From positions 1 through 31,864 of IMG/VR virus record IMGVR_UViG_3300025449_000030: a DNA stretch of 31,864 bases. The stretch is one strand, 5' to 3'. The DNA is from a virus. Below the pieces are notes generated by a model. That model saw only the letters and a list, made by a program, of their open reading frames with translations, was not told where the DNA came from and searched no databases. Both the position numbers and the translations under genes were made by a program. This document shows, one piece after another, positions 1 through 20,893 of the stretch; position 1 is the first letter of the stretch; every line of letters starts with the position of its first letter.

Positions 1-3000
1 GTTGTTGTATGTAATGTATCTGAAAATACTTTTGGGTCCGATATCAGTGTCAACACTACCACTGGTCAAGTAACCTTACAGGCTGGCCGAACCTATCGCT
101 TGCGTGGCGGCGTTCCAGGATGGACAGGAAGTGCTGGTAGCTTACAATGGTGCTGGTATAATGAAACTACTCCGGGCTGGCTAGGCGAAAGCGGTGAAAA
201 CTATTCACCAACAAATAACGCGGCCTACGGAGCAGGAGGTGGGTCTGCTGAAGCAGTGTTTACTCCTGGGACAACCACTGTAGTATCATTTAGAGTCCAG
301 GCTGCCAGTGGCGTAAGTGCCATAGGTGGCAACTCTGACTTTAATACCGCAGGTAGTTATCCTTGGATTGATATTCAAGTCATTGGCGGGCAGGCTCCTA
401 TTACTGGATTCAGTACAGCAGGTAATGTTAATGCTAATAGTATAGTTCTTGTTAATACAGTCACAGCCAACAGTATTGTTGCTGGCACTCAAGTTACAAC
501 AACTACAACTGGTGGCAATCTCATATTGACTGAACAAAGCCCACAAAATCAAGTATTCAACGGCACTGCTAGTCAAACATTAACATTGCCGTCAACAACT
601 ACTACTGGATTGTCATATTTTGTTAATAATAATAGTAGTGGTAATATTGTAGTTAAAAACAGCACTGGCACCACCTTATATACGGTACAGCCAGGTGCCG
701 ACAACGAGTTTATCTATACAGGATCTGGTGTATATAACTGGGATATTCATGGCTTCATACCAAGTGGTGCTACATATGGCAGTGCTTTATTCACAGTTGG
801 TACAACTAACGGAGTCGCGGCCACTGCTTTCAGTGCCAGTGGTAATGTCAACGGTGGTAATGTACTATCTACCGGAGTCGTTTCCAGCTCAGGAAATGCT
901 ATTCATGGTAATATTGTTACTGCTGGATTGATATCAGCTACAGGTAATATTGTTACTGCTGGTAACTTTGTTGGTAATGGCGCGGCACTGAGCAATATTG
1001 TTGTGAGTAGTGTATCCGGCAACGTTATTGGACCACAGGCTAATGTAGGTATTATTGCCGGATCTTATACCTGGACATTTGACAATACTGGCAATTTAAC
1101 ATTACCAACCAATGGAGATTTGATATTTTCAGCAAACACTACTTTAGGAAGTCAAGCTGGATCAAATGGCAATATCACTGTCAATCCGGACGGTACCGGG
1201 CAGTTCATTGTAACTGCAATCACTCCAGCACAGTTTGGTAATAATGTTAGTGTAGCTGGCAATGTTGCGACTGGTGGGTTGACTGTAAACGGATCTGGGG
1301 TAGTTACTGGCAATTTACAAGTTCAAGGTAATTTAACCTATAATAATCTAACTAATATTACTACATCTAATTTGGTATTTGGTTTGGCAAATACGGCCAC
1401 TGGTATCAGTGCCAACGGTGCTGGTTTTGTAGTTGGTAACACCAATCAGGCTACATTTTTATACAACTATAGTGGCAATACTTGGCAAAGTAATATAGGT
1501 ATCAGTGCCGCGGGAAATATTGTTGCGTCAAATATCCAAATTGGTGGGTTGATTAGCTCTAACGGTAATTCTACGGCAGCCAACTATTTGACTAGTGGAT
1601 TAATTTCAGCCACAGGTAATATTACTGGTGGTAACTTAACTGTTAATACTACTATTACAGCAGGATCGTTAACTGTTGGTGCTATTACATCTAATAACAC
1701 TATAACTGGCAATAACGTTAATTCAAATGGTAATGTCGGGATTGGGTCAGCCTTACAAATTATTGGATCAACTAATACTTTGCAGACCAACAATGGATCA
1801 GCTGTCCAGTTTGCTAATCGTGTAAACTTCAATCAAACCGGCACAAGTATTGTGGCATCTGGCAACATTAGCGGGACTAATATTCAAGGTTCTACTCTCA
1901 GCGCCAGTGGTAATGTAAATGGCGGTAATTTAATATTAGCTGCCGGCGGGCAGGTAACTACTCCCAGTGGCAGCAATGGCAATGTTAGCATCAACCCAGA
2001 CGGCACAGGACAGTTTATAGTTACCTCAACTACTCCTGCGGCATTTGGCAATACCTTAAGTGTTACTGGCAACGTTGTTACAGCGAGTTACTTCGTAGGT
2101 AATGTTATTAGTGTTACAATGAGTGCGAGTGGTAACATATACGGTGGCAACATTATTAATGCTGGTATAAGTTCAGTTACTGGCAACCTAAGCGCTGGTA
2201 ATATTATCACAGCTGGACTGATATCAGCTACTGGTAACCTCACAGTTGGTAATATTGCTACCGCTGGCATTGTAACTGCCACTGGCAATATCACAGGTGG
2301 GAATGTACTGAGCAATGGGCTAATATCTACTACAGGCAATGCCACACACGGAAATATCGCCACTGCGGGACAGATTTCAGTTACTGGCAATATATTTGGT
2401 AATATAGCAAATGTAACCACAGTATTTGCTGGTAGCCCGGTTGCAAACTTGTACAACATTGCCGCTGTCAATGCTGTAGGTAACAGTGCCGGCAATACCA
2501 TAACCGCACTAAATCTAATTAATACAGGCGGTGGCGCTGGATCTGGATCAGGCCTAGACTTTTATACCTATACTGGCAACACACAAAATCCGCCAGAAGC
2601 TCGTATTTTTGCCTACGACAACGGCGACTATAGTGCTAATATAAGTTTTGCTACTAAAATTCCAGGAGCTAGTAATAATGCTCTAGCTACACGTATGACT
2701 TTGACCAGTTCAGGTGCTTTGAGCGTGGTGGGGAATGTTTATGCTGGTAACATCATATTAAGCGGTCAGCAGGTCAGTATGGGAGTATCAAACCCAGCTT
2801 ATGCTTATGTGTTCTTAAATACCACTACCGGTTCTTTTGGTTCAGGAACAGATGTTGTGTTTGATACCGTATCAACTTCAAATAATTTGCCTTATAGTAC
2901 CAGTAGTGGTTTGTTTACATTGACTGCTGGTGTGACCTATGAGCTAGAGGCCAGTTTATATGGACAGTTTAGTCAAGGATCCGGTGTTGTTGGTCAATAT

Positions 3001-4455
3001 TACTGGGTAGACAGTAGCAACAATCAATTGATAAGTGGAAATTACGGGCAGATAACCCCGATGACTACTGCTTATAACGACAGCGGTATTAGCCAGAGTA
3101 GTATAATATATACTCCTTCACAAAATATCAGCATCAAGCTGAGATTTACCAATATCAGTGCTGGCACGATGTTATTACAATCTGGCAAGACCTGGGCCAA
3201 AGTTAAACAACTCAATCCGGCCATAGCAGTTCAAGCCACTGCCACTGGTACGATAAACAATCAATTTATAAATGTAACCAATAGTTCTGCTCAAAATGTA
3301 GCCGCAAGTGGAACAGATATTATTTGGGATACCAACTCAGGTAGTTCAGGTATTCCTTATAACTCAGCAACCGGTGTGTTTACACTTACTGCTGGAGTTA
3401 CTTATAATATTATTGGTATGCTGTCGTTCCAAAATTACAGTGCCAATGGTTATGTATTGTATCAAGTGGTTGATGCTACTAGTAACACTGCCATTGGTAG
3501 TCAAGTGGTATCAGCGCCTTACAACACAGGCTACAATGAAGTCAACAATGGTAGTTTGGATATTGTTTATACTCCAAACACAAATCAAACCGTTAAGTTT
3601 AGAGTAACCGGCGGAACAGGTGGATTAACTGCCCAACATCGTGGTGGTTATTTTAGTCGCGCTGCCATTACACAGATTAATCAGGCCTTTAGTTTATCTG
3701 CTATCAATTCATTAAGTTCAACTGGCAATGTTGCAGCTGGTAATATTTTTACCGGAGGACAAATCAGTGCCACAGGAACTGTAACTAGTTCAGGTAACAC
3801 TAACGCCACTGCATTTGCCGTAGTAGGTAATGGAGCAGCCAGCAACGTTGCGTTAGGATTCTTTCCAACAGGTAACACCCCGGCACAAATGGCCATTCGT
3901 GATTACTCAACTGCCAATAGTATAATATATTTTGATACTACAGTAGGTAGTGCCAACACAGGCGGATCTTTCCAATTCCGTAGTAGCAATGCGTTTACGG
4001 TTCTTGCCAATGTCAACAGTTACGGGGTTGTACAACCAACTAAGCCCGGCTTCCGTGTGTATGGTAACGGGGTAACTGCCGGGTTGTCAACTACACAAAA
4101 TGGCACTGGTATACTAAACGGGAACAACTGGGCAGTTGACTATAATCAAGGTAGCTATTTAAATTCCTCAACTGGATATTTCACTGCTCCGGTAGCTGGA
4201 CTATATCAAGTAAATCTTGTAGCTCGTTGTGCTAATAATAGTGCTCCAGCTTCGCAGGCGGTTGTTATCAAAAACTACGGTACAGGTAATGTAAATCAAA
4301 TTATGTGGGAAATTCCTGCTAACGCCCAAGTTAATCACTTTGGGGTAAGCACTACATCAAAACTAGCAGTAGGCGATACTCTTGTTCTCAAAATAACTCA
4401 AGGAAATGTTACTTTTGATGTCAACGATAACTGGTCAGTGGCCTTCATAGGATAA
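1..4455 (+). CDS. Long tail-fibre / adhesin-like structural protein (5' end outside window)
   Basis: The frame is open from base 1, so the gene starts upstream; at least 1484 residues are present. The body is a low-complexity, Thr/Ser/Gly/Asn-rich series of short repeats of the type SATGNIxxGN and AGxISxTGN, as in beta-structured phage fibre shafts. Between and after the repeats are about four similar modules containing patterns like LFTLTAGVTYELEA, VFTLTAGVTYNIIG and YFTAPVAGLYQVNL. These resemble C1q/TNF-like jelly-roll domains; one lies at the extreme N-terminal end seen here and one forms the C-terminus. The inferred role is host-surface binding at the fibre or baseplate. It is followed after 3 bases by a lectin-like gene, suggesting one late tail operon. 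The family assignment to tail fibre is strong; the exact T4 counterpart is not clear. Confidence 0.85.
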   Translation, partial: VVVCNVSENTFGSDISVNTTTGQVTLQAGRTYRLRGGVPGWTGSAGSLQWCWYNETTPGWLGESGENYSPTNNAAYGAGGGSAEAVFTPGTTTVVSFRVQAASGVSAIGGNSDFNTAGSYPWIDIQVIGGQAPITGFSTAGNVNANSIVLVNTVTANSIVAGTQVTTTTTGGNLILTEQSPQNQVFNGTASQTLTLPSTTTTGLSYFVNNNSSGNIVVKNSTGTTLYTVQPGADNEFIYTGSGVYNWDIHGFIPSGATYGSALFTVGTTNGVAATAFSASGNVNGGNVLSTGVVSSSGNAIHGNIVTAGLISATGNIVTAGNFVGNGAALSNIVVSSVSGNVIGPQANVGIIAGSYTWTFDNTGNLTLPTNGDLIFSANTTLGSQAGSNGNITVNPDGTGQFIVTAITPAQFGNNVSVAGNVATGGLTVNGSGVVTGNLQVQGNLTYNNLTNITTSNLVFGLANTATGISANGAGFVVGNTNQATFLYNYSGNTWQSNIGISAAGNIVASNIQIGGLISSNGNSTAANYLTSGLISATGNITGGNLTVNTTITAGSLTVGAITSNNTITGNNVNSNGNVGIGSALQIIGSTNTLQTNNGSAVQFANRVNFNQTGTSIVASGNISGTNIQGSTLSASGNVNGGNLILAAGGQVTTPSGSNGNVSINPDGTGQFIVTSTTPAAFGNTLSVTGNVVTASYFVGNVISVTMSASGNIYGGNIINAGISSVTGNLSAGNIITAGLISATGNLTVGNIATAGIVTATGNITGGNVLSNGLISTTGNATHGNIATAGQISVTGNIFGNIANVTTVFAGSPVANLYNIAAVNAVGNSAGNTITALNLINTGGGAGSGSGLDFYTYTGNTQNPPEARIFAYDNGDYSANISFATKIPGASNNALATRMTLTSSGALSVVGNVYAGNIILSGQQVSMGVSNPAYAYVFLNTTTGSFGSGTDVVFDTVSTSNNLPYSTSSGLFTLTAGVTYELEASLYGQFSQGSGVVGQYYWVDSSNNQLISGNYGQITPMTTAYNDSGISQSSIIYTPSQNISIKLRFTNISAGTMLLQSGKTWAKVKQLNPAIAVQATATGTINNQFINVTNSSAQNVAASGTDIIWDTNSGSSGIPYNSATGVFTLTAGVTYNIIGMLSFQNYSANGYVLYQVVDATSNTAIGSQVVSAPYNTGYNEVNNGSLDIVYTPNTNQTVKFRVTGGTGGLTAQHRGGYFSRAAITQINQAFSLSAINSLSSTGNVAAGNIFTGGQISATGTVTSSGNTNATAFAVVGNGAASNVALGFFPTGNTPAQMAIRDYSTANSIIYFDTTVGSANTGGSFQFRSSNAFTVLANVNSYGVVQPTKPGFRVYGNGVTAGLSTTQNGTGILNGNNWAVDYNQGSYLNSSTGYFTAPVAGLYQVNLVARCANNSAPASQAVVIKNYGTGNVNQIMWEIPANAQVNHFGVSTTSKLAVGDTLVLKITQGNVTFDVNDNWSVAFIG

Positions 4456-4458: not shown

Positions 4459-5841
4459 ATGATAATAAAAGGTGTCGCCCTTAACGGAACTAGCGTATAC
4501 GATGCTTCCTTTAATCCTCAAGGATTGGTAGTTTATCTTGACGCCAATAACAATTCAAGTTATTCCGGTACCGGAACCACTGTTAACGATTTGTCAGGCA
4601 ACGGCTATAATCATACTCTTAGCGCCAGTAGTTTATATACTATGCTGAATGGCGTACGTTGCTTCAACTGCTCATCAACTGGACAGGTTGTCTTGGCTAA
4701 TTCTACTTCAATACAAATACCCACAAACTTTACCTACATTTCATGGACAAGAGTAAGATCTACCAATACAGGTTATAGAACTCTACTAAGATGCTATGCC
4801 GGTGCGACAGGGGATCATCCTATTATTATTAATTCTGGCACTAATATTTTGGGAATGTGGGACAATGCTACACCAACTGGATTTAACAGTTCAGGCTACA
4901 ACATGGTGGCCTATGGTGACGTCTGGGCTCAGTGGGTTACCGTAGGAGACTCTTCGGGACAAACATTTTATATCAACGGCCAACAGGTTGGAACCAGCGT
5001 GAGTAAAACTTCATCAGGACAGTATCACTATGCCTGGGGTAATATACAAAGCGCCAACGATCAACCATGGGGTTATGTAGCCAACTTAGAACTGTATAAT
5101 ACCAAATTTACCGCAGATCAAATTCGTCAAAATTACTACTATTATCTGTCTAAGTTTGCCACACCAGCCAATGTAACGCCTAATCTTGTGTTATGGTATG
5201 ATCCTGACAATTCAGTAAGCTATCCTGGCTCAGGAACCACTGTAACTAATTTGGCCAACACTTCATTGGCCGGGACCATGAGCAATATCACTTATACTGA
5301 TCCTTATTTCAGCTATAACGGGACCAATAGTCAGGTCTCAGTAGCAGATAATGCCTTGTTGGAACCTGGTACCAGTGATTGGACCATGGAAGCCTGGGTA
5401 TATCTCAGCAACAACACTGGGAGTAAATGTGTGCTGGGCAAGTTCAACAATGGCGGAGGGTCCAATGCGGTTTCATATTCTATACGTATCAGCGGAAGCA
5501 ATTTATTTGCACAGATGGGTGATGGATCCGGAAGTTATGTCAACAGTACCAGTTACACTTTACCGTTGAATACTTGGACCCAGGTGGTGTATGTGTGGAA
5601 GGCAGGAGCCACAAAAACTCTTGAAACTTTCATCAACGGCGCCAGCATAGGTGTTGTAACTCACTCACTTAGTTCGCTATTGAACTCTTCTAATCCACTT
5701 TATCTCGGTTCATACAACGGTGGCGAATACAGTCAATGGATGGCCGGGCGAATTGGCATCACTAGACTGTACAGTGCAGCTTTGACCAGCAGTCAAGTGT
5801 TGCAAAATTACAATGCCAATAGAGGCACTTACGGATTATGA
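4459..5841 (+). CDS. Two-domain LamG / concanavalin A-like lectin protein of the tail
   Basis: This 460-residue protein has two tandem beta-sandwich domains of the LamG/ConA-like type. Domain one (about 20-225) begins LVVYLDANNNSSY and carries FYINGQQVG; domain two (about 240-460) begins LVLWYDPDNSVSY and carries WTMEAWVYLSN, TFINGASIG and a closing IGITRLYSAALTSSQVLQNY. Both share the x-INGxxVG hairpin and the terminal 'xxLTxxQVxQNY' helix typical of this fold. Such domains bind glycans or proteins and are common on phage fibres, so host-surface attachment is the likely role. The ATG lies 3 bases after the fibre stop, and the stop overlaps the next gene by ATGA, so the three genes are probably translated together. 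Confidence 0.75.
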   Translation: MIIKGVALNGTSVYDASFNPQGLVVYLDANNNSSYSGTGTTVNDLSGNGYNHTLSASSLYTMLNGVRCFNCSSTGQVVLANSTSIQIPTNFTYISWTRVRSTNTGYRTLLRCYAGATGDHPIIINSGTNILGMWDNATPTGFNSSGYNMVAYGDVWAQWVTVGDSSGQTFYINGQQVGTSVSKTSSGQYHYAWGNIQSANDQPWGYVANLELYNTKFTADQIRQNYYYYLSKFATPANVTPNLVLWYDPDNSVSYPGSGTTVTNLANTSLAGTMSNITYTDPYFSYNGTNSQVSVADNALLEPGTSDWTMEAWVYLSNNTGSKCVLGKFNNGGGSNAVSYSIRISGSNLFAQMGDGSGSYVNSTSYTLPLNTWTQVVYVWKAGATKTLETFINGASIGVVTHSLSSLLNSSNPLYLGSYNGGEYSQWMAGRIGITRLYSAALTSSQVLQNYNANRGTYGL

Positions 5842-6601: not shown

Positions 6602-7678
6602 ATGAGCTTACCAGGAATCACTATAGAAGGTGGTATTAGTATCGGGGGTGGCATTAGTGTTGGCACAGTTTCAGTACCTACATTACCTGTCTTGGATATC
6701 ACCGGGCATACATTTGGCCAGCCATTTGCTGACGTTACATTTGACATAACCAGTGACGGTGGCAGTCCTATAACTGAAGCCGGAGTCATCTGGGGATTGC
6801 CTGGTCAAACAACTTATGCTATCAGTGTGGATAGTTGTGTGACAACTAGCACTACTGCAGAAAGAAAAGCTGTGCGATTCCAGGATAATTGCGGAAATCC
6901 AATACTTACTGGAATTACCGGATCACAAACAGTTGGTTTTAACGCCAGTGAATTTCTATATGAATCTATTAATGCCGTAGCTTATGCGATCAATTCTGTA
7001 GGTATATCGTATAGTCCTACAGTACTAACTTGGGTTCCTACTATTTGTCTAGCTGAAGGAACATTGATTACACTAGCAGATGAAAGTACGAAACCTATCG
7101 AAAACATTCTAATGTCAGACTTGATTAAAGTCTGGGATTTTGATCTTGGTGTATTTGCTTCAGCAAAACCTTTATGGATCAAACAAAAAGAAACAACTAC
7201 ACAATATAACTTATTGACATTTAGTGATGGATCAACACTTAAAACTATTGAACAACACAGAATCTTTAATAAAGAAGCTGGAGCATTTACTTACCCAATG
7301 ACTGATGATACTCCTATTGGCACTACAACTATCAATGTACTAGGCAATGAGGTTACATTAGTTGATAAGTATATTATGATTGACACAGTAAACTACTACA
7401 ATGTAATTACTGAACACCACTTAAACTTATATGCCAACGGCATTTTAACCAGTATGCGTTATAACAATATCTATCCTATCACTGACATGAAGTTTGTCAA
7501 AGATTCTCGAGAACTGCGAGACCGTAACGAGTTTGTTGATATAGATCAGCGTTGGATTCATGGTTTACGATTAACAGAACAAACAATACCATTGGCCTCT
7601 ATTAAATGGTACACTCAAAGATTAGAACATACAGATGATAATCAGCAGACAATAAAGGAAAATAAACTATGTCATTAG
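6602..7678 (+). CDS. Hint (intein/hedgehog-fold) domain tail-associated protein
   Basis: This 358-residue protein has an N-terminal glycine-rich tag (MSLPGITIEGGISIGGG), a fibronectin/Ig-like segment of about residues 25-145, and a Hint domain of about 149-285. The Hint domain starts at Cys149 in CLAEGTLITLADESTKPIEN, has a block-B-like TIEQH (His219) and ends with VITEHHLNLYANGILTS (His273). Hint domains perform N-S acyl shift and protein cleavage or splicing. There is no clear C-terminal HN plus Ser/Thr/Cys junction, so cis-splicing is unlikely and N-terminal cleavage at Gly/Ile-Cys149 is more plausible. About 70 residues follow. A good SD (AAAGGAAAA) precedes the ATG. The CTAAATA just before it could be a degenerate late promoter. 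Confidence 0.78.
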   Translation: MSLPGITIEGGISIGGGISVGTVSVPTLPVLDITGHTFGQPFADVTFDITSDGGSPITEAGVIWGLPGQTTYAISVDSCVTTSTTAERKAVRFQDNCGNPILTGITGSQTVGFNASEFLYESINAVAYAINSVGISYSPTVLTWVPTICLAEGTLITLADESTKPIENILMSDLIKVWDFDLGVFASAKPLWIKQKETTTQYNLLTFSDGSTLKTIEQHRIFNKEAGAFTYPMTDDTPIGTTTINVLGNEVTLVDKYIMIDTVNYYNVITEHHLNLYANGILTSMRYNNIYPITDMKFVKDSRELRDRNEFVDIDQRWIHGLRLTEQTIPLASIKWYTQRLEHTDDNQQTIKENKLCH

Positions 7679-8160
7679 CAGGAATAAGAATTGAAGGCGG
7701 AATCACCATCGGTGGCGGTATCTACATTGGCGCCGCACCGTCATTCACAGTATCACCAGCGGATATTACATTTCAAACATTGCTTGTTCGCGGATACAGT
7801 GCCTACAGTTCAGCAGGATTTACTTCTGATGGCACACAAGTATACAACGGTATTTCTTATACCATCACACCAGGCTTACATGATGCCATTGCAGCTGCAT
7901 CAACTGCCGCTGGATTTACTTATCCTGGGGCATATGTGTGGCATGTTTCTTGGAACACCGGTGGAACTAGTTTAGCAAGGGTAGGACTTGACGGAAATGG
8001 GGCCGGCACTTTGGTCTTTTCACTAATTGACCAAACTGATACTCGCTGGCAAACTGGTGATGACAGTGGACCAACACAAACTGGCACATTTACATTCCCG
8101 GCCACCTTTACACCATATAGCCCACTTACACAGTTACAAAATGCCAATAACTGGTGTTAA
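7669..8160 (+). CDS. Small tail-operon protein sharing the Hint protein's N-terminal tag
   Basis: This 163-residue protein is unrecognised apart from its start. MSLAGIRIEGGITIGGGIYIG is nearly the same as the first 21 residues of the Hint-domain gene before it, including the leader DNA (AAAGGAAAAYAAAYT-like SD region). The remainder is Gly/Thr/Ser-rich and beta-like, ending in a Cys. The start overlaps the upstream gene by 10 bases. The common tag suggests that both products dock on the same structural partner, with different exposed domains. A receptor-binding or tail-tip role is inferred from position only. Confidence 0.6.
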   Translation: MSLAGIRIEGGITIGGGIYIGAAPSFTVSPADITFQTLLVRGYSAYSSAGFTSDGTQVYNGISYTITPGLHDAIAAASTAAGFTYPGAYVWHVSWNTGGTSLARVGLDGNGAGTLVFSLIDQTDTRWQTGDDSGPTQTGTFTFPATFTPYSPLTQLQNANNWC

Positions 8161-8838
8161 ATGATTGTCAAACGTCCTGCTGACACTAGGGGCAATCCTA
8201 GAGCGGATTTTATAAACAGTTACAGGACGTTTAGTTTCCCTAGTTATTACGATGTTCGCTATATGAATTTTAGCGACCTTCAAACTATCAATGATGATCG
8301 TGTACAATATGCTTGGCAAGTGCCTTGGCATGAACACAAAAACATGGAAATCTTTGGCTATGTTGTAGAAGGTTCGAGCCATCATGTAGATAGCTTGGGT
8401 AATGACATCGAAGTACCCGCCGGAGCAGTTCAACGTATGAGTTGCGGATCAGGTATCAGTCATACAGAAGGCAACACTACTAATATTCCTAATCGTTATC
8501 TACAACTTTGGATCAGACCCAATGAATTTGATACTGAACCTAGACATGATTGGCATCAGTTTACCAAGGAAGATAAACTTGATAAATTTTGTAATATAAC
8601 ACAACAATTGCCTATCAAACAAGATGCTAGACTATTAGCCGGAATTTTTACTAAAAAATACAAGTGTGAAATTGACACAGAAAGATTTTATTATTTGTAT
8701 ATGATCGCAGGTTCAGCTACAGTAAATGAGTTAGTATTAATCGAAGGTGACGGGGTGAGTTTTACTCAAGAATCCGCTATTATTATTGATACTGATAGTG
8801 AAGCAGAAATTATTTTGTTTGATTTACGACATCAATAA
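8161..8838 (+). CDS. Pirin-family cupin protein
   Basis: This 225-residue protein is a bicupin of the pirin/YhaK type, close to the short bacterial forms in length. The N-terminal cupin carries VPWHEHKNMEIFGYVVEGSS, DSLGNDIEVPAGAVQRMSCG and GISHTEGN, followed by LQLWIRP, all hallmark pirin stretches. The metal ligands are visible as His57, His59, His101 and Glu103. Known pirins bind Fe(II); some act as quercetinases and others as regulators. The phage substrate is unknown. The ATG follows the TAA of the tail gene directly, so it is probably made late with the tail proteins. Its 3' end overlaps the convergent SWIM-finger gene by 29 bases. Horizontal acquisition from a bacterium is likely. Confidence 0.85.
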   Translation: MIVKRPADTRGNPRADFINSYRTFSFPSYYDVRYMNFSDLQTINDDRVQYAWQVPWHEHKNMEIFGYVVEGSSHHVDSLGNDIEVPAGAVQRMSCGSGISHTEGNTTNIPNRYLQLWIRPNEFDTEPRHDWHQFTKEDKLDKFCNITQQLPIKQDARLLAGIFTKKYKCEIDTERFYYLYMIAGSATVNELVLIEGDGVSFTQESAIIIDTDSEAEIILFDLRHQ

Positions 8839-11197: not shown

Positions 11198-11213
11198 GTT
11201 GTATTTTTACAAC
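11198..11213. repeat. GTTGTA-N4-TACAAC palindrome, copy 2
   Basis: Perfect 16-bp palindrome GTTGTATTTTTACAAC, 21 bp upstream of the -35 of promoter copy 2. It includes the stop codon of the oxygenase gene ending at 11207. Identical to copy 3 at 14202-14217. Confidence 0.6.
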
Positions 11214-11878
11214 TTTACACAAGGACTTTCAAGAAAAAATTTCTTGTCGGCACCACTGCCTAAATGTAAATGTTCGGGATAAAGATCAAATGCTATACTA
11301 ATTCTTTCTTCGTTTCCTTGATAGGTATCAGTCCAATGAGTAATACACGATGGAAATAATGTAAGGAGGCCAGGAATATTTTTTTCTACCCAATGTTGAT
11401 CAGTATCGTATGGATAATCATAGTAGGTATTGGTATCTGTTGTTGCTACTGTAAAATGCCCGCTAAGGTAAGATTCAGGTTCTGCTCCATGATTATGAGC
11501 TTCTATCTTTTGTCCGTGTCGCATCACATTAGCCCAACATTTACCCCATACTGGCACTGGGGGCAATCCTATTTCTTTTCGAAAATTATCATGCTGTTCA
11601 CGCACCCAATTTTTAAAAAAAGTAAAAACAGGCTCTGACCAATCAAAAATATTATAGTAAGTAAATTTACCAGTCAGTGTTTCTGCGCCAAGCCCTGTGG
11701 AACCATCATGCCCTTTTCCGGAAAATTCCTCAATAATAGATTTTTCTTTACTTAAAATTATATCCTTCATATGCTGAACAATATCAATTGGATCGATAAA
11801 CTCAGAATATAAATGATAGTCCCACACAGGGGCAAAAGGAGTACGTCTAGGCGGACTTTGAAGTCTTGTTACGGGCAT
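11207..11878 (-). CDS. 2OG-Fe(II) oxygenase-like protein (HxH type), no. 1
   Basis: Start chosen at the ATG giving MPVTRLQSPP (223 residues); an earlier GTG/ATG-type start at 11914 would add 12 residues. The C-terminal half has the pattern of the 'putative 2OG-Fe(II) oxygenase' family of T4-like phages: KIEAHNHGAEPESYLSGHFTV (His128/His130), then GLLTLFPSCITHWTD (His181) and NEERISIAFDL (Arg192, the likely 2-oxoglutarate carboxylate ligand). Such enzymes use Fe(II), O2 and 2-oxoglutarate to hydroxylate a substrate, unknown here. The start lies inside the end of the upstream gene (32-base overlap). Confidence 0.78.
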   Translation of the reverse strand: MPVTRLQSPPRRTPFAPVWDYHLYSEFIDPIDIVQHMKDIILSKEKSIIEEFSGKGHDGSTGLGAETLTGKFTYYNIFDWSEPVFTFFKNWVREQHDNFRKEIGLPPVPVWGKCWANVMRHGQKIEAHNHGAEPESYLSGHFTVATTDTNTYYDYPYDTDQHWVEKNIPGLLTLFPSCITHWTDTYQGNEERISIAFDLYPEHLHLGSGADKKFFLESPCVKL

Positions 11879-12107
11879 AATTATCTTTTTTAGTTTTAGC
11901 TTCACCGAATTCACGGTATACGTAGTAATTGACTAAACTACGTTGTATCATAGTGATAAGATCACCATGATCCTCAGGAACAACAAATCTAACAGGACAA
12001 TGTCCCCAAGTGCCTGTTTGAACAAAATTGTAGTAATAATAACGATGTTCTTTGTTCTCAGGGTTGAATACCGTCCAGGGTCTTCCATATAGATTTAGTT
12101 TACTCAT
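11847..12107 (-). CDS. Hypothetical protein (86 aa)
   Basis: An 86-residue Tyr-rich protein (MSKLNLYGRPWTVFNPENKEHRYYYY...) ending in a basic tail. It is the first gene behind the promoter at 12128-12156, with SD AAGGAGAAAAG. It is coupled by overlap to the oxygenase gene downstream, so it may be a partner or substrate of it (inference). No domain recognised. Confidence 0.6.
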   Translation of the reverse strand: MSKLNLYGRPWTVFNPENKEHRYYYYNFVQTGTWGHCPVRFVVPEDHGDLITMIQRSLVNYYVYREFGEAKTKKDNYARNKTSKSA

Positions 12108-12127
12108 CTTTTCTCCTTGTTACAGTA

Positions 12128-12156
12128 ATTATAATGATGTTAATATTTAAAGTCAA
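12128..12156 (-). promoter_or_regulatory. Sigma-70-type promoter
   Basis: -35 TTGACT (12151-12156), 17-bp spacer, -10 TATAAT (12128-12133) on the - strand. The -35 overlaps the stop codon of the SleB-type hydrolase gene (12153). Drives 12107 and the oxygenase at 11207-11878. Confidence 0.8.
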
Positions 12157-12776
12157 TGGGCGATATCTTTATAAAAAATATGCGGGCCGGCCATAGCGAC
12201 TACTTCAGACTTTTTACCCCATTTTGGATGTACATACGTGGCATGATAATGCAAAATTCTATCACTATCCAACGGACGAACTCTGATACCGCCAATTAAA
12301 TTACGTGCTATGGTTTCGGCTAAATTCATTTGATCTTGACTCCAAATAACTTTTTTTCTTTCTAAGGTCCAAGAAAATTGAGCTTTGGCAAAAACAACTT
12401 GACATAAGCCATTTCCCCAACTGCCTTCCTTCAGGCGATTAATATGAATTTGACCAACAGCATATTGTGCAGGAATTTCAAGAGTACCGGCTTCCCGAAA
12501 AATACTATAAGCCAAACAATCAATATCTTTTTGTGTTTGTCCTTGTAAAGGTTTGGCTGTGAGTTTAATATCCTTAACTCCAACTTCTTTGATAGATTTA
12601 ATATTTTTGGCAACTTGAATTTTTGGGCGCATTTTAACTTGAGACAATACTTGTCGACTTATAAGAGACTTCTTAGTAACTGAAATAACGTTACCATTCG
12701 CATCCTCAGTCCACATAGCACCGGCTGTATTCGCAAGGGCCGCACCAATAGCTATGGTTGCTAATTTCTTTTTCAT
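12153..12776 (-). CDS. SleB-type cell-wall hydrolase (endolysin)
   Basis: This 207-residue protein has an N-terminal signal-like segment (MKKKLATIAIGAALANTAGA, 1-20), a linker, and a Hydrolase_2/SleB catalytic domain of about 85-207. Visible hallmarks are LAYSIFREAG (probable catalytic Glu95), VGQIHINRLKEGSWGNGLCQVV, QFSW, HYHATYVHPKW and AGPHIFY. SleB enzymes cleave the glycan backbone of peptidoglycan. With a signal sequence this would be a secreted lysin. The TAATG overlap with the small membrane peptide upstream makes the pair a likely lysis cassette. Confidence 0.85.
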   Translation of the reverse strand: MKKKLATIAIGAALANTAGAMWTEDANGNVISVTKKSLISRQVLSQVKMRPKIQVAKNIKSIKEVGVKDIKLTAKPLQGQTQKDIDCLAYSIFREAGTLEIPAQYAVGQIHINRLKEGSWGNGLCQVVFAKAQFSWTLERKKVIWSQDQMNLAETIARNLIGGIRVRPLDSDRILHYHATYVHPKWGKKSEVVAMAGPHIFYKDIAH

Positions 12777-12865
12777 TATTCTAAAATTTTATCAATAGCG
12801 GTAAAAACCAAACTCACAGATAACAGTCCCACACCAGATAACACAATAAGTGATGAAAAATCCAT
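12776..12865 (-). CDS. 29-aa single-span membrane peptide, holin candidate
   Basis: Translated by hand: MDFSSLIVLSGVG ... VFTAIDKILE, 29 residues. One hydrophobic segment (about 5-23) is followed by a short charged tail. A GGGAG SD lies 7 bases before the ATG. Its stop overlaps the lysin start (TAATG), and the pair has its own promoter at 12904-12932. Position directly before a lysin suggests a pinholin-like or holin role, or lysin regulation. Size is smaller than typical holins, so this is inference. Confidence 0.5.
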   Translation of the reverse strand: MDFSSLIVLSGVGLLSVSLVFTAIDKILE

Positions 12866-12903
12866 AAATGACTCCCTACTTAAAAATTAACTGCAATATG
12901 TCT

Positions 12904-12932
12904 ATTGTAGTATCAAAAGAATTACCCGTCAA
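12904..12932 (-). promoter_or_regulatory. Sigma-70-type promoter of the lysis pair
   Basis: -35 TTGACG (12927-12932), 17-bp spacer, -10 TACAAT (12904-12909). An imperfect GTAACTTTTTTACAAC palindrome lies just upstream at 12951-12966. A strong promoter for lysis genes implies either early expression or repression by a phage factor. Confidence 0.78.
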
Positions 12933-12970
12933 TCAAAATTGATTTCAAATGTAACTTTTTTACAACAAAT

Positions 12971-13528
12971 TTAATTAATATTCTCATAGGTTGATGAGAA
13001 TGTAAATCGAAATGTCGGAGCTCGCAACGTCATTGGTAATGCTTTATGAAGAATTGTACTATCAAAAATAACCAATCTTCCCGGTAAGAATTCAAGTATT
13101 AATTCAGGCTCGTTGTTATCATTATAAAAAATTGTTTCCCCGCCCCATTCTTTATTCCACTCATTATTCACGTAATAAAGTATTGTGATAGGATTTTTGT
13201 CAGTACCGGCGTCAGTATGAACGTAAAATTCCGATAAGTGTGTAGTACACGTGATCCAAGATCTAACTCTTCGTTTATTAAGAATAAACGATTTGATGGG
13301 ATTTGCAGAATTGGTATTAAAGATTCCAAATTTTAATAGATCATCTTCGGAAAACGGAGATGCTAAAAATTTACCTTGACTTTTAGAGAATAACGGAGTG
13401 ATAGGTGTAATAGCATAATAAGAATTTTGTGCGAAGATTTCAAAATTATACATTTCAATGGTATTAAATAATCCATCATATATTTGTATTTTTTTACCGT
13501 TTGACGTGATAATTTCTTTCGTGGGCAT
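12971..13528 (-). CDS. 2OG-Fe(II) oxygenase, prolyl-4-hydroxylase-like (HxD), no. 2
   Basis: This 185-residue protein has the full P4H-type core: FYVHTDAGTDKNPITILYYVN (His104, Asp106), WNKEWGGETIFY, FLPGRLVIFDSTILHKALP (His161) and TFRFTFSST (Arg174 as probable 2-oxoglutarate ligand). The family hydroxylates proline or other residues using Fe(II), O2 and 2-oxoglutarate. SD AAAAGGA precedes the ATG. Standalone gene between the lysis cassette and small genes. Substrate unknown. Confidence 0.82.
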   Translation of the reverse strand: MPTKEIITSNGKKIQIYDGLFNTIEMYNFEIFAQNSYYAITPITPLFSKSQGKFLASPFSEDDLLKFGIFNTNSANPIKSFILNKRRVRSWITCTTHLSEFYVHTDAGTDKNPITILYYVNNEWNKEWGGETIFYNDNNEPELILEFLPGRLVIFDSTILHKALPMTLRAPTFRFTFSSTYENIN

Positions 13529-13586
13529 GTTTATTCCTTTTATTATTTAATCAAGGAAATCTTCTTCATCTCTTTTTTACTTTAAA

Positions 13587-13901
13587 TTAAGTCTTTGCCA
13601 GTACCCGAGCAGGATGACGAATCTGCCCCTCATAATCTAACTGATCCTGTTCAAACTCAGTGAGAAAATCGTTTTCTACCAGGTTCCAGCCAATGATGTG
13701 TTCATTGTAGTATGCGGAATTTTCCTCCACCTGAGCACGAACGTCCAACATGATTTCTTGAGCTTCGCTAACGGTACTGACATTCAGTACAAAGTAATCG
13801 TTACCACCTTTGGCTTTCCAGTGTTCAGGGCACTCGCCTACTCCGTCCCAGTCGTGGGCCGCATAATTTTCGTACACTTGAGTTTGAAGATGTAGTTTCA
13901 T
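13587..13901 (-). CDS. Hypothetical protein (104 aa)
   Basis: A 104-residue acidic soluble protein (MKLHLQTQVYENYAAHDWDG...). The middle segment GNDYFVLNVSTVSEAQEIMLDVRAQ (given to show its regular helix pattern in part) suggests an alpha/beta fold. No family recognised. It follows the gene at 13911 by 9 bases and shares promoter copy 3. Confidence 0.6.
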   Translation of the reverse strand: MKLHLQTQVYENYAAHDWDGVGECPEHWKAKGGNDYFVLNVSTVSEAQEIMLDVRAQVEENSAYYNEHIIGWNLVENDFLTEFEQDQLDYEGQIRHPARVLAKT

Positions 13902-13910
13902 AATTATTCC

Positions 13911-14132
13911 TTAAACAAAATCGTAGGCATATTCACCGCGAACCGGTCCGTTCATTTTAACTTTTCCACTACCAAATTCAAAATTTAATCTATCAAAAAT
14001 GTTATCGGCAGTTTCTTTAGAGCAAGCGGCAAATAAAGTACCTGAATTCCCAAAAAATCCAGCATGTTCGTCGTCATTTAACAACGGGCGAGTAATGTAA
14101 CATACATGACTTTCAAATTCTAAACAATTCAT
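13911..14132 (-). CDS. Hypothetical early protein (73 aa)
   Basis: A 73-residue protein (MNCLEFESHVCYITRPLL...) directly behind promoter copy 3. The leader SD is AGGAGCCGAAA, the same module seen before 25261 and 26005. No domain recognised. Confidence 0.58.
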   Translation of the reverse strand: MNCLEFESHVCYITRPLLNDDEHAGFFGNSGTLFAACSKETADNIFDRLNFEFGSGKVKMNGPVRGEYAYDFV

Positions 14133-14138
14133 TTTCGG

Positions 14139-14191
14139 CTCCTAATTTCTTACTATGTGCATATTTTAGTGCCAATTGAATAATTCGTCAA
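14139..14191 (-). promoter_or_regulatory. Sigma-70-type early promoter with conserved leader (copy 3)
   Basis: -35 TTGACG (14186-14191), 17-bp spacer, -10 TAAAAT (14163-14168). The leader 14139-14170 is identical to copies 1, 2 and 4, and spacer plus upstream TTTTGG equals copy 2. Drives 14132 and 13901. Confidence 0.83.
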
Positions 14192-14201
14192 CCAAAATAG
14201 T

Positions 14202-14217
14202 GTTGTATTTTTACAAC
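14202..14217. repeat. GTTGTA-N4-TACAAC palindrome, copy 3
   Basis: GTTGTATTTTTACAAC, identical to 11198-11213, ending 10 bp upstream of the -35 of promoter copy 3 and 13 bases past the lipoprotein stop codon. Confidence 0.6.
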
Positions 14218-14230
14218 ATAAAAATTAATG

Positions 14231-14518
14231 CTAGATATTAGTGATAGTTTGTATACACCCGCCACCTATAGTCCAGTCATATTGAACAGTAAAATGTTGT
14301 GATGAAAATGTGTACAAGGTGCTGAATTCGCCTTTACTAGGCGGCAAAACCGTTTTTAAATCTGGTATACCCCAACTTTGAAAGTATGGAGTAGCCATAG
14401 AGTTTACTATGTTTATGACTGTACTGTCACATTGAGTGATAACAATAGGATTTTTTAGATTATCTTGTCCGCCACTGCAGGCTGATAATATTAATGATAA
14501 AAAAATTATGTACTTCAT
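14231..14518 (-). CDS. Small lipoprotein
   Basis: Start set at MKYIIFLSLILSACSGG (95 residues), seven codons inside the longest frame, because this gives a textbook lipoprotein signal with lipobox LSAC (Cys14). The mature part is soluble (VITQCDSTVINIVNS...). It would sit on the periplasmic side of a membrane. Candidate roles are superinfection exclusion or an outer spanin partner; nothing decides. The promoter -10 ends only six bases before this ATG, so the mRNA is probably leaderless. Confidence 0.68.
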   Translation of the reverse strand: MKYIIFLSLILSACSGGQDNLKNPIVITQCDSTVINIVNSMATPYFQSWGIPDLKTVLPPSKGEFSTLYTFSSQHFTVQYDWTIGGGCIQTITNI

Positions 14519-14524
14519 ATGCCT

Positions 14525-14553
14525 AGTATACAGCGGCATTTGATTAGGTACAA
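14525..14553 (-). promoter_or_regulatory. Sigma-70-type promoter giving a leaderless transcript
   Basis: -35 TTGTAC (14548-14553), 17-bp spacer, -10 TATACT (14525-14530), then six bases (AGGCAT) and the ATG of the lipoprotein. The start codon falls at the expected transcription start. Confidence 0.65.
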
Positions 14554-14559
14554 TGACTT

Positions 14560-14593
14560 ATTACAGTAATTACATTTGATTACAGTTATTACA
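14560..14593. repeat. Tandem 15-bp direct repeat next to lipoprotein promoter
   Basis: ATTACAGTAATTACA (14560-14574) and ATTACAGTTATTACA (14579-14593), one mismatch, 19-bp period, so nearly two helical turns. They sit directly upstream of the -35. The spacing suits a dimeric regulator binding twice. Confidence 0.55.
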
Positions 14594-15656
14594 ACAAATT
14601 ACGTTTCTTAAGTACTTCTAAAGACTTCACGGCAGAATTGGCCCAAGAAAATTTTGTACGAATAATTTCACTATTTTTAATGGCTTGTGTACTCAATATG
14701 GAATATTCATCATAAGCTTTACGCATACTAACTCTAATATCTTTTATTGTGGGTACTGCCCATTTACCAAAGTTTCCATCTGGGGCAGGATAAAATTCTT
14801 GATATTCCGGGCAAGATATTTCTTTAAGGTCATATTGTACAGCAACACAAGATGACATAATATCTTTTAAAAATTCTGTATGTCCTGAATAAAATGTTGT
14901 GATCAAAGGCAACCCGCATGCGGCTGCTTCGATTAAAGGAAGACCCCATCCTTCAGCTTTGGTTGGGAATACAAAAACATCCGATCTTCTGTAAAGATTT
15001 GATAATTGTAGTAAAGTTTGATGACCCCAAACTAATTTAATATTTGAACAATTTAAATCTTTAATTATTTGATTTAATTCATTATATTTTTCAGTTGGAT
15101 TCCGAAAAAAATCTGATTTAACAACTAGCTCAAATTTATCATCATTGCCAAATTCATCAGCAAAAGCAGTCAGTGTCTCTGTGATACTTTTACGTATTTC
15201 GCTTTTTCCAATGAATAAAAATCTAAAAGGTCTAGTTTCTTGAAATTTTAAATAAGGATGAAAAATTGAACCATCTACGCCTTCGGGCACAACTTCAATT
15301 TTATTACTATCACACCCATTTTCTATAGCAATTTTACGTCCCCATTCACTGGGTACCCATAGGTTGTGATCAGCTATTGCTTCTATTAAAGAACTGGGTA
15401 TTCGAGTAGATTCAAAAACTCCCCAATTGATATTTGTACCATGGAAAAAATTATTAAGATTACAAACAACTAATGCTAGATTAATATCTCCGGACTGGCT
15501 TTCTTTTGCGGCTTTATAAATAGCATCATTATCTTGAAAATTAATGAATTCAATAATTTGATTTATACCGCCTATTTGTTTTAAGGCATTAGTGTAATTT
15601 TGATAGTGAGTGCCTATTCCCGAATCATTCGGTTGGCCAATAATTCTAAATTTCAT
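14589..15656 (-). CDS. GT4-type glycosyltransferase
   Basis: This 355-residue protein has the GT-B fold of family-4 glycosyltransferases. The N-terminal Rossmann part (1-135) includes SGIGTHYQNY near the start and VVPEGVD at 123-129. The C-terminal part has FRFLFIGKSEIRKS (145-157) and the donor-site motif AEGWGLPLIEAAACGLPLI with the E-x7-E pair Glu235/Glu243. It would transfer a sugar from a nucleotide-sugar. Phage members decorate DNA, capsid proteins or host surface. No SD is evident. It lies downstream of the 376-aa protein gene with 42 bases between. Confidence 0.87.
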   Translation of the reverse strand: MKFRIIGQPNDSGIGTHYQNYTNALKQIGGINQIIEFINFQDNDAIYKAAKESQSGDINLALVVCNLNNFFHGTNINWGVFESTRIPSSLIEAIADHNLWVPSEWGRKIAIENGCDSNKIEVVPEGVDGSIFHPYLKFQETRPFRFLFIGKSEIRKSITETLTAFADEFGNDDKFELVVKSDFFRNPTEKYNELNQIIKDLNCSNIKLVWGHQTLLQLSNLYRRSDVFVFPTKAEGWGLPLIEAAACGLPLITTFYSGHTEFLKDIMSSCVAVQYDLKEISCPEYQEFYPAPDGNFGKWAVPTIKDIRVSMRKAYDEYSILSTQAIKNSEIIRTKFSWANSAVKSLEVLKKRNLL

Positions 15657-15698
15657 CTAGTAATTATCTAGAATTATTGACTAGGTTATATTATTTGA

Positions 15699-16829
15699 TT
15701 AAAGTAATTCCCAGCTAATAAATTGTGGGTTTCTCAGACTTTGTACGCGAGCGGTTGGGTTTGATGCAAACATACCATTGGCATATCTCATATAGATATC
15801 AAGGCTGGCGGCATCATCTGAATCTGCTCTGCCAATATCTGCTAAAAATAATTGACTGGTCCCATCAGCTTCGCCGTAACGAATACCTTTTAATACTAAG
15901 TCTTGAGCTTCTTGAGCACTTGGCACATAATACAAACTCTTAGGAGTACAATAATAATACGGAGCAGGACCAAACCTTAACATTTGTGCTAGGGCTTTAT
16001 TACCTTTTAAATGTGTTTCAATAATAGTTTCGTAAGATTTAGCGATAGCAGTAAACAAAGGACGAGCATAATCTTTTTTTGTTTGCCAATGTGCCTGAAA
16101 CCAGTCTCCAAATGGTCTTTGCCAAGCGGCATTTGTTTCAATACTATTCAAAATTTTATCAGCTGGCCAATCAATTGTTTGAATAGCACCTGATGCTTTT
16201 CCTACGCATTTAAATGTGTTAGTTTTAGAAATATAAGTTACAGTAAATCTGGGATCTTTAGTGAAATAAGGTTCATCTGGAACACTTTGGGCTATTCCCA
16301 ATACTTCAGAGAATATTTTTTGTTTCATATCATCGTATTCATCTTTGGCATAATGACTAAAACCGTCCATACCTCTTGGTACTTCAATACCTAGTGAAGT
16401 AGGGGTTAAATTTGCCAGTGTAATACCTGCTTCTGCTTTAATTGAAATGCCTGCGGTTAATCCTGATTCAAACTGAATATCTGTTACCCCACCGGCAATA
16501 TTTGCTCCGGCAACCCAGCCTAAGCGAGTCGGTGCTTCTCCTTGCTTTGCTATTATTTTTCCTCGAATTTCTTTTCCTCTGGCTGCCCAAGACATGAATA
16601 ATTCTGATTTGTAAACTGGCCCTAAATATTTTTTAATATCGTTATAGGTCTGATCAGGGTTAATTAAAATAGAATTAGGTATAGTGTCTTGTGGATTTTT
16701 AATATCAAATGTCCCGTTACCTACTAACCCATAAAGAATTCCAACTTCACTATTATAGCGTATTTCTTTAGATGATTTATTTTCAACATCATCTTCGTTT
16801 ATTTTTTTAGTAACTTCAAATATTTTCAT
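15699..16829 (-). CDS. Conserved-looking phage protein, possible PD-(D/E)xK-like core, unknown function
   Basis: Start set at MKIFEVTKKINEDD (376 residues) rather than the longest frame, because an AATAAATA late-promoter-like box ends 7 bases upstream. The region GGVTDIQFESGLTAGISIKAE is reminiscent of the beta-hairpin D...xIK core of PD-(D/E)xK nucleases, but the canonical acidic residue before x-K is replaced by Ser, so activity is doubtful. The N-terminus resembles the short leader of T4 head-targeted proteins in size and composition. Product could be an internal head protein or a nuclease-like factor. Not recognised with confidence. Confidence 0.6.
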   Translation of the reverse strand: MKIFEVTKKINEDDVENKSSKEIRYNSEVGILYGLVGNGTFDIKNPQDTIPNSILINPDQTYNDIKKYLGPVYKSELFMSWAARGKEIRGKIIAKQGEAPTRLGWVAGANIAGGVTDIQFESGLTAGISIKAEAGITLANLTPTSLGIEVPRGMDGFSHYAKDEYDDMKQKIFSEVLGIAQSVPDEPYFTKDPRFTVTYISKTNTFKCVGKASGAIQTIDWPADKILNSIETNAAWQRPFGDWFQAHWQTKKDYARPLFTAIAKSYETIIETHLKGNKALAQMLRFGPAPYYYCTPKSLYYVPSAQEAQDLVLKGIRYGEADGTSQLFLADIGRADSDDAASLDIYMRYANGMFASNPTARVQSLRNPQFISWELL

Positions 16830-16836
16830 AATAGTA

Positions 16837-16844
16837 TATTTATT
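16837..16844 (-). promoter_or_regulatory. T4-type late promoter box (degenerate)
   Basis: AATAAATA on the - strand, seven out of eight bases of TATAAATA, followed by seven bases and the ATG of the 376-aa protein. It is divergent from the perfect box at 16903-16910. Confidence 0.5.
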
Positions 16845-16902
16845 AATTTTTTGTGCTGATTTCTTTTTCAATATTATGCTGTTAATTAAATTAATATTCA
16901 AT

Positions 16903-16910
16903 TATAAATA
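16903..16910 (+). promoter_or_regulatory. T4-type late promoter box
   Basis: Perfect TATAAATA, 25 bases before the papain-like gene's ATG, with an AAAGGAT SD between. In T4 this box is read by gp55-loaded RNA polymerase. Confidence 0.75.
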
Positions 16911-16935
16911 ATTTAAGTTAAAGGATCAACCTACT

Positions 16936-17784
16936 ATGATAGCACAAAATTTACCAGTATATACTTCGGAAAAAGACCCAAACTATGTAGCACAAATGGC
17001 TATAAATGCTATTCCTAAATATCACTGGAAGGCTAGTCCGCCAAATCTTCAATTCCCAATATACAATCAGGTTGCTCCGTCTATAACCCCGACAATTGTT
17101 GATTTAAGACCTTATGCTAGTCCAATAGATGATCAAGGTAATTTAGGATCTTGTACTGGAAATGCTATTGCTGGGGCAATTGATTTAGTAGACTACGAAA
17201 ATAAAAAATCAGAAAGAGTCAGTCGCTTATTCATTTATTATCAAGAACGTGTAATAGAAGGAGATATAACAAAAGACAACGGAGCTTATATTCATGACGG
17301 TATTACTGCTTGTAGTCAAACTGGAGCACCGTTAGAATCATTATGGCCTTATACTGTAAGTAAATTCGCAGTTCAGCCCAATCAAACGGCATACACAGAT
17401 GCCGCTAAACGTAAAGTAACTGGGTACAGTAAATGTAATAATTTTGCCGCTGTAAAAACTGCTCTTGCCAATAAAGCACCGGTAGTGATTGGATTTTATG
17501 TCTACAGTAGTTTTGAATCGGGAACTTGGTGGCAACCACGTGGCACAGGCTTGATGCCTTATCCTAATACAAGAACTGAGCAACTTTTAGGCGGCCATGC
17601 CGTATGTATTGTGGGATACAACGATAATTTAACCGGACCTGCTGGCAAAGGTTATTTTATTGTTAGAAATAGCTGGGGCACCAGTTGGGGGCAACAAGGA
17701 TATTTTTATATGCCTTACTCTGTAATACAAAATACGTCTATGAGTAGTGATTTTTGGGCTATCACTTCTGTGGCTAATCCTTAA
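16936..17784 (+). CDS. Papain-family (C1) cysteine protease
   Basis: This 282-residue protein has the full C1 catalytic set. DQGNLGSCTGNAIAGA gives oxyanion Gln67 and nucleophile Cys73, GGHAVCIVGYND gives His221, and VRNSWGTSWGQQGYFYMPY gives Asn245. There is no signal peptide; the first 50 residues could be a short propeptide or virion-docking part. C1 proteases occur on several large phages and may cut host surface or phage structural proteins. A perfect late promoter lies upstream. Its TAA shares a TTAA with the stop of the convergent methyltransferase gene. Confidence 0.88.
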   Translation: MIAQNLPVYTSEKDPNYVAQMAINAIPKYHWKASPPNLQFPIYNQVAPSITPTIVDLRPYASPIDDQGNLGSCTGNAIAGAIDLVDYENKKSERVSRLFIYYQERVIEGDITKDNGAYIHDGITACSQTGAPLESLWPYTVSKFAVQPNQTAYTDAAKRKVTGYSKCNNFAAVKTALANKAPVVIGFYVYSSFESGTWWQPRGTGLMPYPNTRTEQLLGGHAVCIVGYNDNLTGPAGKGYFIVRNSWGTSWGQQGYFYMPYSVIQNTSMSSDFWAITSVANP

Positions 17785-18446: not shown

Positions 18447-18459
18447 AATTTAATCCTTT

Positions 18460-19392: not shown

Positions 19393-19409
19393 GCTTAATT
19401 ATATATTAA

Positions 19410-19835
19410 TTAAGTCTTTAAATCAATCATATCTGCTAATCCACGCAATCTTTCCGCATCTTCAGCTCCATACATGGCATTTTTGGCAGTATTACAACGA
19501 TTACAAAGAATTTGATAATTTTCTATGCTGTCTGCTCCCCCGCGGGTTGTGGGAACAATATGATCCAGGCTGGGCATATTATCACTGGCTTTTTTGCCCT
19601 TAATATTTCCCCCTAAACTATAATCTAATACGTTCCCACATCGCAGATTAGCACATTTTTCCCCGCATATTGCTCGCATGGCGTCATGTCCCGCACGACG
19701 TGTTCTATGATTTTTACCTACCCATACATGTCGCATGGCTGTGGCAGCATCTTCGCCCGCATCTAATGCCTCTACAAATCTTTTAAATGTAGCGGCATTA
19801 CCATAGGTTTTTTTATTATATCCTAATTGTATCAT
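19410..19835 (-). CDS. HNH endonuclease
   Basis: Start set at ATG 19835 (141 residues); a TTG four codons upstream touches the ParB-like stop. The C-terminal half has an HNH fold with zinc cysteines: C57, C66, then LDHIVPTTRGGADSIENYQILC (Asp91-His92, Asn106, shown in part) and the CNRCNTAKN knuckle (Cys111, Cys114). The N-terminal 55 residues resemble a helical DNA-binding region. It may be a homing endonuclease or the nuclease part of the ParB/DNA-methyltransferase neighbourhood. Confidence 0.85.
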   Translation of the reverse strand: MIQLGYNKKTYGNAATFKRFVEALDAGEDAATAMRHVWVGKNHRTRRAGHDAMRAICGEKCANLRCGNVLDYSLGGNIKGKKASDNMPSLDHIVPTTRGGADSIENYQILCNRCNTAKNAMYGAEDAERLRGLADMIDLKT

Positions 19836-19847
19836 TTCGTGGTCCAA

Positions 19848-20840: not shown

Positions 20841-20893
20841 TTAGATCCTCCATTTGGCAATATGAGTGGTAATTAATTATCAATTACAAGACT

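What the first reader, a model, noticed from the sequence alone, without database searches (positions are those of the whole stretch)
8161..8838. Pirin-family cupin attached to the tail operon
The protein retains the four metal ligands (His57, His59, His101, Glu103) and its ATG follows the tail gene's stop without a gap. Pirins bind Fe(II). With the oxygenases and FeoA-domain protein it adds to an iron theme and is an unusual phage cargo.
Basis: partly seen in the sequence, partly recalled or inferred. Interest (0 to 1): 0.6.

Follow-up and report, generated by a model that had tools for sequence, protein, structure and literature searches.

The report
Phage pirin paired with cysteine-tailed proteins
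A metal-binding enzyme of the pirin family is encoded, across very different giant freshwater phages, directly behind a gene for an adhesin-like phage protein that ends in tryptophan-cysteine, which suggests that the phage pirin acts on the cysteine tails of the phage's own surface proteins.

Summary
Window 8161-8838 encodes a full-length YhhW-type pirin (Pfam Pirin 78 bits, Pirin_C_2 53 bits; predicted fold TM 0.90 to E. coli YhhW). All four metal ligands are present and its ATG abuts the upstream stop. The 'iron theme' is not supported: several large pirin-carrying phage records have no 2OG-Fe(II) oxygenase match. Phage pirins form one clade distant from sampled bacterial pirins (at most about 41% identity), under strong purifying selection (dN/dS about 0.1). 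They are 65-83% identical between phages whose major capsid proteins are mostly 18-37% identical.

The constant companion is the gene in front. In 32 of 45 nonredundant loci that protein ends in cysteine, mostly ...W-C-COOH, against 15 of 480 other phage ORFs nearby and 0 of 23 upstream neighbours of bacterial pirins. Two protein families with no detectable similarity (WC-domain adhesins; MGRPLKI structural-type proteins) share only this tail. All 24 evaluable contigs found by searching for the WC-domain tail alone also carry the pirin.

I infer a two-gene module in which the pirin binds or oxidises the C-terminal Trp-Cys tail of phage adhesins. The association is shown; the chemistry is inference.

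The parts
8161..8838 (+). YhhW-type pirin (bicupin), 225 aa
   Evidence: Pfam Pirin 78.4 bits and Pirin_C_2 52.6 bits; YhhW E about 1e-40; Foldseek TM 0.90 to 6uts
8329..8337 (+). codons of metal ligands His57 and His59 (WHEH)
   Evidence: translation; invariant in A1 and A2
8461..8469 (+). codons of metal ligands His101 and Glu103 (HTE)
   Evidence: translation; invariant in A1 and A2
7669..8160 (+). partner protein, 163 aa, with the WC C-terminal domain; N-terminal repeats GIxIxGGIxIGGG
   Evidence: alignment A3; AF2 pLDDT 81; same family directly upstream of the pirin in many loci
8152..8157 (+). codons of the terminal Trp-Cys tail of the partner protein
   Evidence: sequence; conserved tail
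6602..7678 (+). adhesin-cluster protein, possible Hint-like segment
   Evidence: Pfam Hint E 0.11 only; 89% identical copy in L024
5838..6557 (+). lectin-like (Laminin_G_3) adhesin-cluster protein
   Evidence: Pfam 37.4 bits; PHROG virion structural protein
4459..5841 (+). lectin-like (Laminin_G_3) adhesin-cluster protein
   Evidence: Pfam 104.8 bits; PHROG virion structural protein
100..4455 (+). long repetitive fibre-like protein, gene probably runs off the window start
   Evidence: ORF; weak C1q match at the C-terminus, below cut-off
16936..17784 (+). papain-type protease; homologue next to the pirin in some loci, optional part
   Evidence: Pfam Peptidase_C1 70.7 bits; cluster 3; only 3 of 15 records

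Best explanation
The pirin is the conserved second half of a two-gene phage module. The first half is an adhesin or structural-type protein whose chain ends in Trp-Cys (or another residue followed by Cys). I propose that the pirin acts in trans on that C-terminal tail during virion assembly. Its 3His/1Glu metal centre would bind the terminal cysteine (thiolate and carboxylate) and either oxidise it or hold it as a cap, so that the adhesin is matured or protected. Shown: the pirin fold and ligands, the strong selection, the gene pairing, and the shared tail on two protein families without detectable similarity. Inferred: physical recognition of the tail, that the partners are virion proteins, and that the reaction is an oxidation.
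For: The protein encoded directly upstream ends in Cys in 32/45 nonredundant loci, versus 15/480 at other positions (Fisher 2e-29). 44 of 50 loci with at least 2.5 kb upstream have a Cys-terminal protein within four genes. A3 adhesins and A7 MGRPLKI proteins have no detectable profile similarity except the last seven columns. A scan of viral contigs for the WC-domain tail alone found 27 real WC contigs: 24 carry the pirin and the other 3 end at or shortly after the WC gene. Among MGRPLKI homologues, pirin occurs only with a terminal Cys (15 with, 0 without; Fisher 2e-8). Bacterial pirins lack the association (0/23). Both Cys codons, gaps of 0-180 nt and all three frames occur, and the stop is TAA in 45/45, so the peptide end, not a DNA signal or a fusion, is conserved. 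Pirin identity of 65-83% against MCP identity mostly of 18-37% and dN/dS of about 0.1 suggest a constant molecular partner.
Against: Most Cys-terminal partners share the A3 domain, so the counts are not independent; the independent part is A3 versus A7 plus three unassigned proteins. Four MGRPLKI loci keep the terminal Cys without a pirin nearby (fragments), and six pirin loci have no Cys-terminal neighbour. In one search terminal Cys and pirin could both simply mark one clade. The AF2 model of the WC protein read through into the pirin gives no interface (tail pLDDT below 50, pTM 0.63). No biochemical evidence exists, and known pirin activity is on flavonols (PMC11642861).
Confidence: 0.5

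Rival explanations
1. Non-catalytic virion part: the pirin is a tip or cap protein assembled on the end of the adhesin, like T4 gp38-type tip proteins, and its metal site serves only to clamp the tail.
For: Gene order directly behind the adhesin gene; one pirin in loci with several Cys-terminal adhesins.
Against: All four ligands are invariant and the sequence is strongly constrained (dN/dS about 0.1), unlike receptor-binding tips, which diversify (general knowledge).
Confidence: 0.2
2. Auxiliary metabolic enzyme: a quercetinase-type dioxygenase that degrades flavonols or similar aromatic compounds in the infected cell; the position behind adhesin genes is only a convenient late-expression slot.
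For: Full-length homology and fold match to YhhW, which has quercetinase activity (PMC11642861).
Against: Does not explain the linkage to Cys-terminal proteins or the survival of the pairing across divergent phages; no close bacterial donor found.
Confidence: 0.15
3. Hitchhiking by modular recombination: the pirin travels with an adhesin cassette because recombination happens there, and the Cys tail belongs to the adhesin (for example a disulfide in a trimer) without any contact with the pirin.
For: Remnants of the WC gene end sit before the pirin where the upstream gene was replaced; terminal Cys without a nearby pirin in four loci.
Against: The same tail occurs on a second, dissimilar family with a different gap to the pirin; variable gaps and frames; 24/24 co-occurrence.
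Confidence: 0.12

Closest known systems
E. coli YhhW (pirin family, PDB 1tq5/6uts), a quercetinase
   Same: Whole length, both cupin domains, 3His/1Glu site, fold TM 0.90
   Different: About 34% identity; the phage clade is separated by a very long branch from sampled bacterial pirins, lacks a loop of about six residues in the C-terminal domain, and pairs with Cys-terminal phage proteins
Phage tail-fibre tip and assembly genes (T4 gp38, Tfa), from memory
   Same: Small gene directly downstream of an adhesin or fibre gene
   Different: Unrelated fold, metal site, not hypervariable
Enzymes that modify a C-terminal Cys of a peptide (TglHI of the 3-thiaglutamate pathway; flavin Cys decarboxylases), from memory
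   Same: The proposed substrate is a C-terminal Cys; TglHI is iron-dependent
   Different: Different folds; the substrate here is a large phage protein; no chemistry shown

Membership tests
Pirin (PF02678, YhhW subfamily with PF17954) | N-terminal pirin domain above the curated cut-off | tested here: met
   78.4 bits vs 26.1
Pirin (PF02678, YhhW subfamily with PF17954) | C-terminal cupin domain Pirin_C_2 | tested here: met
   52.6 bits vs 22.9
Pirin (PF02678, YhhW subfamily with PF17954) | 3His/1Glu metal ligands | tested here: met
   invariant in A1 and A2
Pirin (PF02678, YhhW subfamily with PF17954) | bicupin fold | tested here: met
   Foldseek to 6uts, TM 0.90
Pirin (PF02678, YhhW subfamily with PF17954) | quercetinase activity and metal identity | not testable with these tools
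   needs purified protein
Fibre tip/chaperone (gp38, Tfa type) | gene directly downstream of the fibre or adhesin gene | tested here: met
Fibre tip/chaperone (gp38, Tfa type) | sequence or fold of a known tip/chaperone family | tested here: not met
   pirin fold; no PHROG tail family
Host-derived auxiliary metabolic gene | close relationship to a bacterial donor gene | tested here: not met
   at most about 41% to sampled bacteria; one phage clade with 100/100 support; sampling limited
C-terminal Cys-modifying enzymes (TglHI, Cys decarboxylases) | MNIO/DUF692 or flavoprotein fold | tested here: not met
   cupin fold instead
C-terminal Cys-modifying enzymes (TglHI, Cys decarboxylases) | acts on a C-terminal Cys | not testable with these tools
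   only the genetic pairing is shown

The most novel reading that the evidence does not exclude
Phages use a short C-terminal Trp-Cys tag on unrelated surface proteins as the recognition site of a dedicated pirin, which oxidises or caps the terminal cysteine: a tag-plus-cupin protein-maturation system not described before, shared horizontally among phages of different bacterial groups.
Probability: 0.35. Interest if true: 0.85.

Novelty: new variant of a known kind. Interest (0 to 1): 0.6.

Why it matters
Pirins are found widely in cells, yet their natural substrates are disputed. Here one clade of pirins comes with a candidate physiological partner, and the partner carries a short, mutable tail. 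That makes a direct test of pirin function possible. If the tail is modified, it would be a new kind of post-translational processing of phage surface proteins and would explain why the gene is kept across very divergent giant phages.

Tried and rejected
Iron theme: 2OG oxygenases (PF13640) are not found in several large pirin carriers; not the pirin's context. Papain-type protease as an obligate third partner: a neighbour in 12 of 60 loci but found in only 3 of 15 records searched. Conserved DNA signal or ribosome-binding site at TGGTGYTAA: rejected by variable gaps, all three frames, both Cys codons, and persistence in records that hardly use Shine-Dalgarno sites. Read-through fusion: rejected by frame differences and TAA stops. 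Recent host acquisition: the phage-motif scan of genome contigs found no relative; best bacterial relatives about 33-41%. Phage collection hits: the annotated hit region of 'Acinetobacter phage MD-2021a' looks like host DNA. WC-domain fold in PDB: none; one uncharacterised viral match. AF2 of the WC protein read through into the pirin: domain arrangement not defined. Literature: the one phage paper opened from the pirin search mentions pirin only in a host deletion; no paper combined pirin with 'auxiliary metabolic gene'.

Full report
What is there. The window is a complete 31,864-base IMG/VR record with no end repeats, so probably a fragment. ORF 8161-8838 encodes a 225-aa bicupin of the pirin family: Pfam Pirin 78.4 bits, Pirin_C_2 52.6 bits. 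It aligns end to end with E. coli YhhW, and the AF2 model matches YhhW with TM 0.90. The ligands His57, His59, His101 and Glu103 are present and invariant in the viral relatives aligned and in bacterial ones. The start codon abuts the upstream TAA.

Distribution and age. Scans of 2.9 million viral contigs gave about 60 loci at 53-82% identity and further loci at 45-50%. The gene occurs once in each of 14 records checked, 13 of them of 92-476 kb. None of 50,697 cultured-phage records has it at more than about 36% identity, and the annotated hit region examined looks bacterial. A scan of bacterial genomes with the phage motifs found no relative; with looser motifs the best bacterial pirins are about 33-41% identical. 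In a 73-sequence tree the phage pirins form one clade with full support on a long branch. Both sets were gathered by motif scans, so this is one clade among what was sampled.

The gene moves among phages. Carriers have T4-type major capsid proteins that are mostly 18-37% identical to each other while their pirins are 65-83% identical; the closest distinct pair by capsid (85%) has pirins of 79%. Some records, the window among them, show Shine-Dalgarno sites at 28-40% of starts, others at 0-11%. This matches the two main pirin subclades for the records I could place, and suggests hosts from different bacterial groups (inference). Selection is strongly purifying, with dN/dS about 0.1.

The partner gene. 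Neighbours of the pirin are variable adhesin-type genes. One feature recurs: the protein encoded directly upstream ends in cysteine in 32 of 45 nonredundant cases, versus 15 of 480 ORFs at other positions. Position -2 is Trp in 39 of 45 Cys-terminal proteins. 44 of 50 loci with enough upstream sequence have such a protein within four genes. The background rate of an aromatic residue plus Cys before any stop codon is 0.7%. Bacterial pirins show nothing similar: 0 of 23 same-strand upstream neighbours end in Cys, and 0 of 511 ORFs in those loci end in aromatic-Cys.

The tail is shared by protein families that are otherwise unlike each other. In the window and most relatives the Cys-terminal proteins carry one C-terminal domain (alignment A3), joined to different N-terminal parts. 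This protein is predicted at pLDDT 81 and has no PDB match. In the distant clade the upstream protein is a different family starting MGRPLKI(R/A)K and ending ENWC, NNWC, ENFC or DYAC. Profile comparison of the two families aligns only the last seven columns, and neither profile detects the other. Three further Cys-terminal proteins near pirins match neither profile (L033 +1, L066 -3, L075 -2). Five of 39 A3-domain proteins do not end in Cys, so the tail is not simply part of the fold. The fold of the MGRPLKI family was not predicted, so remote homology is not excluded.

Searching from the other side. Scanning viral contigs for the WC-domain tail, without using the pirin, gave 30 contigs. Three were not WC genes. 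Of 27 true ones, 24 carry the pirin. The other three stop 21 nt, 1 nt and 824 nt after the WC gene and cannot be judged; the last resembles L009, where a further gene lies between. The pattern came from pirin-linked tails, which is a bias. Among MGRPLKI homologues the counts are: terminal Cys with pirin 15, terminal Cys without pirin 4, no terminal Cys with pirin 0, neither 25. The four exceptions are loci with similar flanking genes where the pirin is missing.

Peptide rather than DNA signal. Gaps from stop to pirin ATG run from 0 to 180 nt in all three frames, both Cys codons are used, and the stop is TAA in 45 of 45 against 412 of 543 for all ORFs. This argues against a ribosome-binding site, a recombination site or a fusion protein, and fits selection for an exact C-terminus.

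Mechanism. The best-supported reading is a module of tailed adhesin plus pirin, in which the pirin recognises the Trp-Cys terminus and oxidises or caps it. The pairing is shown; recognition and chemistry are inferred. A read-through AF2 model of the two neighbouring proteins left the tail disordered and the arrangement undefined, and a covalent link is in any case a poor test. Quercetinase activity, reported for YhhW and human pirin (PMC11642861), remains possible but does not explain the linkage.

Nine ORFs of the window pass Pfam cut-offs for 2OG-Fe(II) oxygenases and one for FeoA, but six of the eleven other carriers examined have no PF13640 match. The pirin's constant associate is the tailed protein, not the oxygenases.

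Limits. Most evidence comes from metagenomic fragments. Sequences are related, so p-values overstate independence. Hosts are inferred, and that the partners are virion proteins is inferred from neighbours. No experiment links the pirin to the tail.

Noticed in passing
11207-30986 (nine ORFs): Nine 2OG-Fe(II) oxygenase domains above Pfam cut-off in 20 kb, of two Pfam families.
   Followed up: partly
21867-22133 (-): An 88-aa protein with a FeoA domain (41.5 bits), overlapping an oxygenase gene.
   Followed up: no
6602-7678 (+): Adhesin-cluster protein with a possible Hint (hedgehog/intein-like) segment CLAEGTLITLADES..., Pfam E 0.11; an 89% identical copy in L024.
   Followed up: partly
16936-17784 (+): Papain-type protease; its homologue is a direct neighbour of the pirin in 9 loci and lies three genes upstream in 3, so a possible optional third part of the module.
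   Followed up: partly
L007, L071 (also L025): Short remnants of the WC gene end (TPIIYANNWC, INQWC; a similar end in L025) remain in front of the pirin where the upstream gene was replaced.
   Followed up: partly
L035, L036: Pirin truncated after about residue 129 and continued in unrelated sequence, a decayed or recombined copy.
   Followed up: no
L263 5098-6474 (-): In the distant clade the pirin lies beside a tail sheath / tail sheath stabilizer-type gene (phrog_11196, E 1e-76).
   Followed up: partly
45 Cys-terminal genes near phage pirins: All 45 use TAA as stop codon, against 76% of ORFs in the same loci.
   Followed up: no
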